NCBI GenBank assembly: GCA_903813345.2
Contig: CAIIXF020000012.1
Coordinates: 9,322,432 to 9,386,431 of the forward strand
DNA: 64,000 bases
Direction of reading: 5' to 3'
DNA from: Owenia fusiformis
Lineage: Eukaryota > Annelida > Polychaeta > Sabellida > Oweniidae
The translations under genes were made by a program, and so were the position numbers. The stretch's first letter is position 1; each line of letters begins with the position of its first letter. Below are positions 1 to 5,225 of the stretch, one piece after another. The notes under the pieces are model-generated. The model ran no database searches, was not told the origin of the DNA, and worked only from the letters and a program-made list of their open reading frames with translations.

Positions 1-3000
1 TTGAAACTGCCATCTTTTATTATATACATGTACATGTTTTATTCATTCTTGGTGTTTTATTTCTACAGGGTTATGTACACAAGAGATGAACCAACACAAC
101 CTGATGACATCACTCCTGATATTGAAACTGCCATCTTTTATTATATACATGTACATGTTTTATTCATTCTTGGTGTTTTATTTCTACAGAGTAATGTACA
201 CAAGAGATGAACCAACACAACCTGATGACATCACTCCTGATATTGAAACTGCCATCTTTTATTATATACATGTACATGTTTTGTTCATTCTTGGTGTTTT
301 ATTTCTGCAGAGTAATGTACACAAGAGATGAACCAACACAACCTGATGACACCACTTCTGATATTGAAACTGCCATCTTTTATTATATACATGTACATGT
401 TTTGTTCATTCTTGGTGTTTTATTTCTACAGGGTTATATACACAAGAGATGAACCAACACAACCTGATGACATCACTCCTGATATTGAAACTGCCATCTT
501 TTATTATATACATGTACATGTTTTATTCATTCTTGGTGTTTTATTTCTACAGGGTTATGTACACAAGAGATGAACCAACACAACCTGATGACATCACTCC
601 TGATATTGAAACTGCCATCTTTTATTATATACATGTACATGTTTTACTTATTCTTGGTGTTTTATTTCTACAGGGTTATGTACACAAGAGATGAACCAAC
701 ACAACCTGATGACATCACTCCTGATATTGAAACTGCCATATTTTATTATATACATGTACATGTTTTATTCATTCTTGGTGTTTTATTTCTACAGGGTAAT
801 GTACACAAGAGATGAACCAACACAACCTGATGACATCACTCCTGATATTGAAACTGCCATCTTTTATTATATACATGTACATGTTTTATTCATTCTTGGT
901 TGTTTTATTTCTACAGGGTAATGTACACAAGAGATGAACCAACACAACCTGATGACATCGCTCCTGATATTGAAACTGCCATCTTTTATTATATACATGC
1001 ACATGTTTTATTCATTCTTGGTGTTTTATTTCTGCAGAGTTATGTACAAAAGAGATGAACCAACACAACCTGATGACATCACTCCTGATATTGAAACTGC
1101 CATCTTTTATTATATACATGTACATGTTTTATTCATTCTTGGTGTTTTATTTCTGCAGGGTAATGTACACAAGAGATGAACCAACACAACCTGATGACAT
1201 CACTCCTGATATTGAAACTGCCATCTTTTATTATATACATGTACATGTTTTATTCATTCTTGGTGTTTTATTTCTACAGGGTTATGTACACAAGAGATGA
1301 ACCAACACAACCTGATGACATCACTTCTGATATTGAAACTGCCATATTTTATTATATACATGTACATGTTTTATTCATTCTTGGTGTTTTATTTCTGCAG
1401 AGTAATGTACACAAGAGATGAACCAACACAACCTGATGACATCACTCCTGATATTGAAACTGCCATCTTTTATTATATACATGTACATGTTTTATTCATT
1501 CTTGGTGTTTTATTTCTGCAGAGTAATGTACACAAGAGATGAACCAACACAACCTGATGACATCACTCCTGATATTGAAACTGCCATCTTTTATTATATA
1601 CATGCACATGTTTTATTCATTCTTGGTGTTTTATTTCTACAGGGTTATGTACACAAGAGATGAACCAACACAACCTGATGACATCACTCCTGATATTGAA
1701 ACTGCCATCTTTTATTATATACATGCACATGTTTTATTCATTCTTGGTGTTTTATTTCTGCAGGGTTATGTACACAAGAGATGAACCAACACAACCTGAT
1801 AACATCACTCCTGATATTGAAACTGCCATCTTTTATTATATACATGCACATGTTTTATTCATTCTTTATGTTTTATTTCTGCAGAGTAATGTACACAAGA
1901 GATGAACCAACACAACCTGATGACATCACTCCTGATATTGAAACTGCCATCTTTTATTATATACATGCACATGTTTTATTCATTCTTGGTGTTTTATTTC
2001 TGCATGGTTATGTGCACAAGAGATGAACCAACACAACCTGATGACATCACTCCTGATATTGAAACTGCTATCTTTTATTATATGGTACATGTACATGTTT
2101 TATTCATTCTTGGTGTTTTATTTCTACAGAGTTATGTACACAAGAGATGAACCAACACAACCTGATGACATCACTCCTGATATTGAAACTGCCATCTTTT
2201 ATTATATACATGCACATGTTTTATTCATTCTTATGTTTTATTTCTGCAGAGTAATGTACACAAGAGATGAACCAACACAACCTGATGACATCACTCCTGA
2301 TATTGAAACTGCCATCTTTTATTATATACGTGTACATGTTCTATTTATTCTTGGTGTTTTATTTCTGCAGAGTAATGTACACAAGAGATGAACCAACACA
2401 ACCTGATGACATCACTCCTGATATTGAAACTGCCATATTTTATTATATACATGTACATGTTTTATTCATTCTTGGTGTTTTATTTCTGCAGGGTAATGTA
2501 CACAAGAGATGAACCAACACAACCTGATGACATCACTCCTGATATTGAAACTGCCATCTTTTATTATATACATGTACATGTTTTATTCATTCTTGGTGTT
2601 TTATTTCTGCATGGTTATGTGCACAAGAGATGAACCAACACAACCTGATGACATCACTCCTGATATTGAAACTGCTATCTTTTATTATATGGTACATGTA
2701 CATGTTTTATTCATTCTTGGTGTTTTATTTCTACAGAGTTATGTACACAAGAGATGAACCAACACAACCTGATGACATCACTCCTGATATTGAAACTGCC
2801 ATCTTTTATTATATACATGCACATGTTTTATTCATTCTTTATGTTTTATTTCTGCAGAGTAATGTACACAAGAGATGAACCAACACAACCTGATGACATC
2901 ACTCCTGATATTGAAACTGCCATCTTTTATTATATACGTGTACATGTTCTATTTATTCTTGGTGTTTTATTTCTGCAGAGTAATGTACACAAGAGATGAA

Positions 3001-5217
3001 CCAACACAACCTGATGACATCACTCCTGATATTGAAACTGCCATCTTTTATTATATACATGTACATGTTTTATTCATTCTTGGTGTTTTATTTCTGCAGG
3101 GTAATGTACACAAGAGATGAACCAACACAACCTGATGACATCACTCCTGATATTGAAACTGCCATCTTTTATTATATACATGTACATGTTTTATTCATTC
3201 TTGGTGTTTTATTTCTGCATGGTTATGTACACAAGAGATGAACCAACACAACCTGATGACATCACTTCTGATATTGAAACTGCCATCTTTTAATATACAT
3301 GTACATGTTTTATTCATTCTTGGTGTTTTATTTCTGCAGGGTAATGTACACAAGAGATGAACCAACACAACCTGATGACATCACTTCTGATATTGAAACT
3401 GCCATCTTTTAATATACATGTACATGTTTTATTCATTCTTGGTGTTTTATTTCTGCATGGTTATGTACACAAGAGATGAACCAACACAACCTGATGACAT
3501 CACTTCTGATATTGAAACTGCCATCTTTTAATATACATGTACATGTTTTATTCATTCTTGGTGTTTTATTTCTGCAGAGTAATGTACACAATAGATGAAC
3601 CAACACAACCTGATGACATCACTCCTGATATTGAAACTGCCACATCTTTTATTATATACATGTACATGTTTTATTCATTCTTGGTGTTTTATATCTACAG
3701 AGTTATGTACACAAGAGATGAACCAACACAACCTGATGACATCACTCCTGATATTGAAACTGCCATCTTTTATTATATACATGTACATGTTTTATTCATT
3801 CTTGGTGTTTTATTTCTACAGGGTTATGTACACAAGAGATGAACCAACACAACCTGATGACATCACTCCTGATATTGAAACTGCCATCTTTTATTATATA
3901 CGTGTACATGTTCTATTTATTCTTGGTGTTTTATTTCTGCAGAGTAATGTACACAAGAGATGAACCAACACAACCTGATGACATCACTCCTGATATTGAA
4001 ACTGCCATATTTTATTATATACATGTACATGTTTTATTCATTCTTGGTGTTTTATTTCTACAGAGTAATGTACACAAGAGATGAACCAACACAACCTGAT
4101 GACATCACTCCTGATATTGAAACTGCCATCTTTTATTATATACATGTACATGTTTTATTCATTCTTGGTGTTTTATTTCTGCAGAGTAATGTACACAAGA
4201 GATGAACCAACACAACCTGATGACATCACTCCTGATATTGAAACTGCCATATTTTATTATATACATGTACATGTTTTATTCATTCTTGGTGTTTTATTTC
4301 TGCAGGGTAATGTACACAATAGATGAACCAACACAACCTGATGACATCACTCCTGATATTGAAACTGCCATCTTTTATTATATACATGCACATGTTTTAT
4401 TCATTCTTGGTGTTTTATTTCTGCAGGGTAAAGTACACAAGAGATGAACCAACACAACCTGATGACCTCACTCCTGATATTGAAACTGCCATCTTTTATT
4501 ATATACATGTACATATTTTATTCATTCTTGGTGTTTTATTTCTGCAGGGTAATGTACACAATAGATGAACCAACACAACCTGATGACATCACTCCTGATA
4601 TTGAAACTGCCATCTTTTATTATATACATGTACATGTTTTATTCATTCTTGGTGTTTTATTTCTGCAGGGTAATGTACACAATAGATGAACCAACACAGC
4701 CTGATGACATCACTCCTGATATTGAAACTGCCATCTTTTATTATATACATGTACATGTTTTATTCATTCTTGGTGTTTTATTTCTGCAGGGTAATGTACA
4801 CAATAGATGAACCAACACAACCTGATGACATCACTCCTGATATTGAAACTGCCATCTATTAATATACATGTACATGTTTTATTCATTCTTGGTGTTTTAT
4901 ATATGCAGGGTTATGTACACAAGAGATGAACCAACACAACCTGATGACATCACTCCTGATATTGAAACTGCCACATCTTTTATTATATACATGTACATGT
5001 TTTATTCATTCTTGGTGTTTTATTTCTACAGGGTTATGTACACAAGAGATGAACCAACACAACCTGATGACATCACTCCTGATATTGAAACTGCCATCTT
5101 TTATTATATACATGTACATGTTTTATTCATTCTTGGTGTTTTATTTCTGCAGAGTTATGTACACAAGAGATGAACCAACACAACCTGATGACATCACTCC
5201 TGATATTGAAAGTGAAC
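1..5217 (+). repeat. 121-bp splice-acceptor tandem array (about 43 copies)
   Basis: The core ATGAACCAACACAACCTGAT recurs about every 121 bp from base 86 to 5168, giving about 43 copies. The array is already running at base 1, so it extends upstream. Each unit contains about 72 bp of intron end (CTGCCATCTTTTATTATATA, then TTTATTTCTGCAG or TTTCTACAG) followed by 49 bp that match the start of the BLTP2 exon at 5153. No unit except the last has a 5' donor. A few units are 120, 119 or 124 bp. Blocks of about five units are themselves duplicated: the variant pair near 1902-2150 recurs near 2509-2757. Because 121 is not a multiple of 3, an upstream acceptor reads into a TGA in the following unit. 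The many ~81-residue reading frames across the array are therefore by-products, not genes. Confidence 0.95.
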
Positions 5218-5225
5218 ATCCTTCT
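5153..5225 (+). CDS. BLTP2: BLTP2 exon fed by the acceptor array
   Basis: 73 nt; reads (x)[20 protein letters not shown] then EHPS, with donor TCT|GTAAGT. The acceptor is TTTCTGCAG at 5144-5152. Up to GATATTGAA it equals every array unit; beyond that it diverges into AGTGAACATCCTTCT, which occurs only here. It is therefore the only copy with a donor. An acceptor one unit upstream would add 121 nt and reach TGA (…VHKR*) within this unit. Confidence 0.85.

What the first reader, a model, noticed from the sequence alone, without database searches (positions are those of the whole stretch)
1..5225. A splice acceptor amplified into a satellite at least 43 copies long
Each 121-bp unit contains a polypyrimidine tract, a CAG acceptor and the first 49 bp of a conserved BLTP2 exon; only the last has a donor. 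Splicing must therefore ignore at least 42 near-identical upstream acceptors. Using any of them appears to put a TGA into the mRNA (…VHKR*), because 121 shifts the frame. This could be a tolerated burden, or a poison-exon control of BLTP2 dose set by copy number. I know of no described case of this form.
Basis: partly seen in the sequence, partly recalled or inferred. Interest (0 to 1): 0.88.

Follow-up and report, generated by a model that had tools for sequence, protein, structure and literature searches.

The report
Amplified splice sites in annelid BLTP2
In what appears to be an annelid worm, the edge of one exon of the BLTP2 gene has been copied 46 times in a row and the edge of another 34 times, yet the gene reads correctly only if splicing picks the one site touching the rest of the exon; such 'mirage' repeats were described in lancelet genes, and here they look like tolerated decoys.

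Summary
The array is real: 46 copies of a ~121-bp unit (43 by Tandem Repeats Finder in the window, the rest just upstream). Each holds the 3' end of an intron plus the first ~56-59 nt of a 73-nt BLTP2 exon. 42 of 46 keep CAG. Use of any of the 45 upstream copies would give a premature stop; only the last, at 5153, joins 13 BLTP2 exons in one open frame. 'No described case' is wrong: tandem repeats of intron/exon boundaries are the 'mirages' of amphioxus. New here: a genome that looks annelid; a mirror array of 34 splice donors in the same gene (18736-19879; 33 of 33 downstream donors give a stop); a 66-bp donor duplication; and five more splice-site-carrying arrays in 38 dynein/myosin loci (172 exon hits). 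That rate fits random placement (3.0-3.7 expected), while no array lies inside an exon hit (4.4-7.3 expected). Decoy copies show no coding constraint (variable sites: exon part 13/56, intron part 17/65). Best reading: neutral minisatellites whose decoys lose because the site nearest the exon body wins (exon definition). A poison or dose-setting role is unsupported but not excluded. Actual splicing is untested: no cDNA was available.

The parts
1..5211 (+). 121-bp array, 43 of its 46 copies; each copy = 3' end of an intron with acceptor + first ~56-59 nt of a 73-nt BLTP2 exon. It continues upstream to L001:9575.
5153..5225 (+). The only productive form of the exon (73 nt, [25 protein letters not shown] with split ends), last acceptor CAG|A, donor GTAAGT at 5226
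5451..7399 (+). Next four BLTP2 exons (5451-5615, 5861-6037, 6795-6873, 7233-7399), open in frame with the eight exons called in L001 and the array exon
10712..10843 (+). Donor-side duplication, 66 bp x 2: exon end + donor (AAG|GTAACA at 10767, AAG|GTTACA at 10833); the second donor would add 22 codons in frame
18609..18749 (+). BLTP2 exon whose end (...VLIAQ) and donor founded the 34-bp donor array
18736..19879 (+). 34-bp array with 34 AG|GTAAAA donors (18750-19874); each unit = last 14 nt of the exon + donor + 20 nt of intron; only the first keeps the frame
20357..20690 (+). Degenerate relatives of the 34-bp donor unit further down the same intron (read by eye)
20808..20921 (+). Next BLTP2 exon ([15 protein letters not shown]...), joined in frame to the first donor; the frame test ended one base short, at 20920

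Best explanation
The array is a 'mirage': a minisatellite that arose when a ~121-bp segment straddling an intron/acceptor/exon boundary of BLTP2 was tandemly duplicated (junction at a 3-bp AAA match) and then amplified by unequal exchange or slippage. A duplication that straddles one boundary always leaves one intact exon: the last copy for acceptors, the first for donors. The decoys are therefore harmless provided that the splicing machinery picks the site nearest the exon body, as expected when an exon is defined as a unit across its own acceptor and donor. Growth of the array itself lengthens the intron (379 nt to the first acceptor, 5,826 nt to the last), which should push the choice further toward exon definition. 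Shown: anatomy, copy counts, reading frames, lack of coding constraint, the same pattern at donors and in other genes. Inferred: which sites are used, the neutrality of the effect on BLTP2 output, the mode of amplification.
For: 46 copies, 42 with CAG. Only the last acceptor keeps the frame, and the 13-exon product matches Hobbit at 9.9e-131. The site itself cannot carry the choice: 9 decoy acceptors are identical to the real one over -20..+3, and 9 decoy donors are identical over all 34 bases of the unit. Mirror array at a donor in the same gene: 33 of 33 downstream donors give a stop. Decoy exon parts are as variable as intron parts (13 of 56 vs 17 of 65 sites, Fisher p 0.83), and 10 of 13 exon changes are non-synonymous against 79% expected (p 0.75; columns, test). 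Survey of 38 dynein/myosin loci: five splice-site-carrying arrays, expectation 3.7 for 59 arrays or 3.0 for the 37 strict ones (P(>=5) 0.32 and 0.16), and no array inside an exon hit against 7.3 or 4.4 expected (P 0.0005 and 0.0035). Amphioxus mirages do not disturb splicing by RT-PCR (PMC3087553, passages). A human-gene database study reports that in large introns the sites closest across the exon are preferred (PMC9225289, abstract).
Against: No transcript was examined. Most BLTP2 introns listed are short (10 of 12 are 156-757 nt), a setting where PMC9225289 says sites closest across the intron are preferred; that would favour the first, unproductive acceptor, above all when the array was young. 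The absence of arrays inside exon hits is partly built in, because a large insertion would break a Pfam hit. Hit ends are not exact exon ends.
Confidence: 0.8

Rival explanations
1. Copy-number poison switch: a regulated share of transcripts uses an upstream acceptor or downstream donor, gains a stop and is destroyed by nonsense-mediated decay, so array length sets BLTP2 output.
For: 45 of 45 upstream acceptor copies and 33 of 33 downstream donors in BLTP2 give a stop; two large arrays in one gene.
Against: Stops follow from unit lengths not divisible by three. Decoys show no constraint. The same arrays occur in dynein and myosin genes at about chance rate. In L005 five of six decoy donors stay in frame without a stop, and BLTP2's own 66-bp duplication is in frame.
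Confidence: 0.06
2. Leaky burden: decoys are used at a low, unregulated rate that rises with copy number, a mild cost carried by drift.
For: Nine decoys match the real acceptor exactly at -20..+3; the first decoy sits 379 nt from the upstream donor, within the gene's usual intron range.
Against: Straddling arrays are not depleted relative to random placement, so any cost must be small.
Confidence: 0.11
3. Assembly artefact: the copy number or the array itself is wrong.
For: Repeats are prone to misassembly; PMC3087553 notes one amphioxus mirage aberrantly assembled in the draft genome.
Against: 37 of 46 aligned units are distinct, and a five-copy block (copies 20-24) recurs as 25-29 with 0-1 differences per unit; similar arrays recur across the genome. 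Exact copy number remains open.
Confidence: 0.03

Closest known systems
Amphioxus 'mirage' minisatellites (globins BflGb6 and BflGb9, Adh3, troponin C, PGBD5)
   Same: Tandem repeats that straddle an intron/exon boundary; either boundary can be involved; many units keep AG or GT; ordinary genes (PMC3087553 and PMC3902484, passages).
   Different: The globin arrays have 3 and 6 units of 150-160 bp; here 46 units of 121 bp and 34 units of 34 bp in one gene, in a genome that looks annelid. Splicing was checked there by RT-PCR, not here. The primary Adh paper is not held.
Intron gain by tandem duplication of an AGGT-containing segment
   Same: Tandem duplication that copies splice-site sequence inside a gene (PMC4974935, search listing only).
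   Different: There the duplication yields a new intron; here the existing intron grows and no new intron is called.
Poison exons coupled to nonsense-mediated decay (recalled)
   Same: Mis-spliced forms would carry a premature stop.
   Different: No complete cassette exon with its own established donor, and no conservation of the decoys.
Intronic minisatellites of earthworm metallothionein genes
   Same: Annelid gene with large repeat arrays in an intron and exon duplications absent from the transcript (PMC12783039, passages).
   Different: The passages seen do not say that the arrays span a splice site.

Membership tests
Amphioxus-type mirage | Minisatellite-like tandem duplication spanning an intron/exon boundary | tested here: met
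   46 units, each intron 3' end + acceptor region + exon start; donor counterpart with 34 units
Amphioxus-type mirage | Many but not all units keep AG/GT splice signals | tested here: met
   42 of 46 CAG, 4 CAT; 34 AG|GTAAAA donors found by that pattern, so degenerate units are not counted
Amphioxus-type mirage | Both 5' and 3' exon boundaries can be affected | tested here: met
   Acceptor: BLTP2 121-bp, L017, L035, L037. Donor: BLTP2 34-bp and 66-bp, L005, L030
Amphioxus-type mirage | Regular splicing of the mRNA is undisturbed | not testable with these tools
   No transcript data for this genome
Amphioxus-type mirage | Length instability between haplotypes or cells | not testable with these tools
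   One assembly only; the recent five-copy block duplication is indirect support
Amphioxus-type mirage | Concerted evolution inside the array with edge copies left out | tested here: inconclusive
   Mean difference to other units: first copy 7.1, last copy 3.5, average pair 5.1: the first edge is diverged, the last is not
Poison exon / decay switch | Alternative exon form bringing in a premature stop | tested here: met
   45 of 45 upstream acceptor copies, on paper only
Poison exon / decay switch | Conservation of the decoy element | tested here: not met
   Exon part as variable as intron part within the array; non-synonymous share as expected by chance. No second species could be compared
Classical satellite DNA | Long array at many or heterochromatic sites | tested here: not met
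   All 45 matches listed lie at one locus, about 5.6 kb (that search skips very common words)
Intron gain by tandem duplication | A new intron bounded by duplicated sites | tested here: not met
   The reading frame is kept with the old exon only; no new intron needed

The most novel reading that the evidence does not exclude
BLTP2 output is tuned by heritable and somatic changes in the length of two opposed splice-site arrays: each added decoy acceptor or donor diverts a small share of transcripts into decay, making a length-coded dial on a lipid-transfer gene.
Probability: 0.06. Interest if true: 0.85.

Novelty: new member of a known kind. Interest (0 to 1): 0.5.

Why it matters
It takes mirages out of lancelets into what looks like an annelid and shows both mirror forms in one gene, with up to 45 decoys. 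Some decoys equal the real site base for base (nine acceptors over -20..+3, nine donors over the whole 34-bp unit), so these loci are ready-made natural tests of how the spliceosome chooses: the first acceptor is favoured by intron length, the last by exon length, and only the last makes protein. The survey suggests that splice-site-straddling minisatellites arise freely and are not purged, which gives a route by which introns lengthen.

Tried and rejected
Satellite at many loci: rejected, all listed matches at one place. Dead or duplicated BLTP2: rejected. No solved structure matched at E <= 0.01. Selection on decoy exons: tested, none seen. Rescue by re-splicing at the GTAATG found in 24 of 46 copies: considered by reasoning from the sequence only; it would leave an extra base and shift the frame. 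Splice-site strength scoring was not done, because exact identity of decoys and real sites is the stronger argument.

Arrays looked at and not counted in the survey: L009 23-bp and L030 21-bp arrays (next to an acceptor, but the acceptor is not in the unit) and L038 17-bp x 2 (ambiguous; overlaps an exon hit by 3 bp; counting it would make six). 8 of 180 exon hits lay outside the fetched loci and were dropped: two at C7:1.538 Mb because the piece was cut at 10,000 bases, six because I did not fetch their stretch.

Decoy consequences are not uniform: in L030 one of three decoy donors gives a stop inside the exon and two only shift the frame; in L017 nine of ten decoy acceptors stop and one shifts the frame; L035 four of four and L037 three of three stop; L005 five of six stay in frame, one shifts.

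Literature. In the listings of 11, 14, 43, 47 and 56 I saw no title or abstract describing splice-site-spanning arrays in an annelid; the library is open-access only.

Full report
What is there. The window lies at G000:C12:9322432-9386431 of a 498-Mb genome in 525 contigs. Positions 1-5211 are a tandem array, 43.0 copies of 121 bp, 96% matches. The 10 kb upstream (L001) shows that the array begins at L001:9575, about 360 bp before the window; 46 copies are found with an exact anchor word. 42 of 46 have CAG at the acceptor and four (20, 25, 30, 32) have CAT.

The gene. Eight exons upstream in L001, the 73-nt exon at 5153-5225 and four exons downstream join in one open frame, and the product matches Pfam Hobbit/FMP27/BLTP2 at E 9.9e-131. 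The next exon is found once in the genome (2 candidates scored); the 15 Hobbit matches listed at E <= 10 are all on C12. No PDB sequence matched at E <= 0.01.

Founding event. The unit runs from an intron point (ATAACCC|AAACTGCC) to an exon point (GATATTGAAA|GTGAAC); the two ends share AAA. Of the exon, 56-59 of 73 nt are in the unit. Spacing is 121 in 35 of 45 intervals. Mean pairwise difference is 5.1 per unit, about 4%; 37 of 46 aligned units are distinct; copies 20-24 recur as 25-29 with 0-1 differences per unit.

Consequences on paper. Starting the exon at any of the 45 upstream copies gives a premature stop; only copy 46 is open (the four CAT copies were included as if usable). The intron is 379 nt to the first acceptor and 5,826 nt to the last. 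So the first acceptor is favoured by intron length and the last by exon length. Nine decoys are identical to the real acceptor over -20..+3.

Mirror array. The same gene has 34 donors at 18750-19874 in a 34-bp array founded by the last 14 nt of exon 18609-18749, its donor and 20 nt of intron. The first donor joins in frame to the exon at 20808; the other 33 of 33 give a stop. Nine decoys match the real unit at 34 of 34 bases. Degenerate relatives lie at 20357-20690 (by eye). A third case is a 66-bp duplication at 10712-10843 that repeats an exon end and donor; its second donor would add 22 codons in frame.

Is it special to BLTP2? I fetched 38 stretches (192,137 bp) holding 172 of the 180 exon hits to dynein AAA_6 and myosin head. 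Of 59 non-overlapping arrays (period 14 or more), five carry a splice site in the unit: L005 30 bp x 7 donor, L017 37 bp x 10.5 acceptor, L030 34 bp x 4 donor, L035 61 bp x 4.5 acceptor, L037 260 bp x 4.2 acceptor. Random placement of one unit per array gives 3.7 straddling (3.0 for 37 strict arrays), P(>=5) 0.32 and 0.16; arrays inside an exon hit are expected 7.3 (4.4) times and none was seen, P 0.0005 and 0.0035. The second result is partly built in, since an internal array would break a Pfam hit. Counting the ambiguous L038 would make six. Straddling arrays thus behave like intronic ones.

No sign of function in the decoys. Within the 121-bp array the exon part varies at 13 of 56 sites and the intron part at 17 of 65 (p 0.83); 10 of 13 exon variants are non-synonymous, against 79% expected (p 0.75).

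Mechanism. I conclude that these are neutral minisatellites and that the productive site is chosen by its position next to the exon body. This is inferred: no transcript was seen. A human-gene database study reports that sites closest across the exon are preferred in large introns and closest across the intron in short ones (PMC9225289, abstract only). 10 of 12 introns listed for this gene are 156-757 nt, so the early, short stage of the array is the weak point of the argument.

What is known. Tandem repeats spanning exon-intron boundaries are 'mirages' in amphioxus: Adh3, globins BflGb6 (6 and 3 units in two haplotypes, 150-160 bp) and BflGb9, with RT-PCR indicating that they do not disturb splicing (PMC3087553, passages); PGBD5 and troponin C are added by PMC3902484 (passages). 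The primary Adh paper is not held. What differs is scale, the two mirror arrays in one gene, and the lineage.

Lineage. Three matches to the erythrocruorin linker family PF16915 pass the cut-off, one of them with a stop inside (that the family is annelid-specific is recalled; the 14 controls are other named genomes, 0 hits). Contig lengths were seen for 11 of C1-C12 (31.9-62.2 Mb), which fits about 12 chromosomes; Owenia fusiformis has 12 (PMC9539403, passages). The species is an inference.

Noticed in passing
L001:4790-6494: A long open frame with a sulfotransferase-like C-terminal part lies in a BLTP2 intron on the same strand (read by eye; no family search made); its middle holds a 63-bp x 4.6 repeat.
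   Followed up: no
window 14195-14690 and L001 ~6515-7015: Two copies of one dispersed element with a tRNA-like stretch sit in two BLTP2 introns, SINE-like by eye; ARAGORN reports no tRNA in the window.
   Followed up: partly
L023 (G000:C9:37985600-37994700): Twelve separate hits to about the same part of the myosin head (profile ~18-84) in a row: probably a cluster of alternative exons.
   Followed up: no
window ~9975-10070: Inverted repeat (ATCTTTTGATCC ... GGATCAAAAGAT) inside a BLTP2 intron, like a small terminal-inverted-repeat element (by eye).
   Followed up: no
L002:6433-8303 and 9359-9983: The same 73-bp minisatellite unit in two blocks (25.5 and 8.5 copies) in the BLTP2 intron upstream, not overlapping a Hobbit exon hit.
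   Followed up: partly
window 21482-22171 (-): Open frame of 229 aa resembling a fibrinogen-related domain by eye (not searched).
   Followed up: no
window 43876-44023 and 45765-45872: Short repeats rich in the palindrome CCATGG at two nearby places.
   Followed up: no
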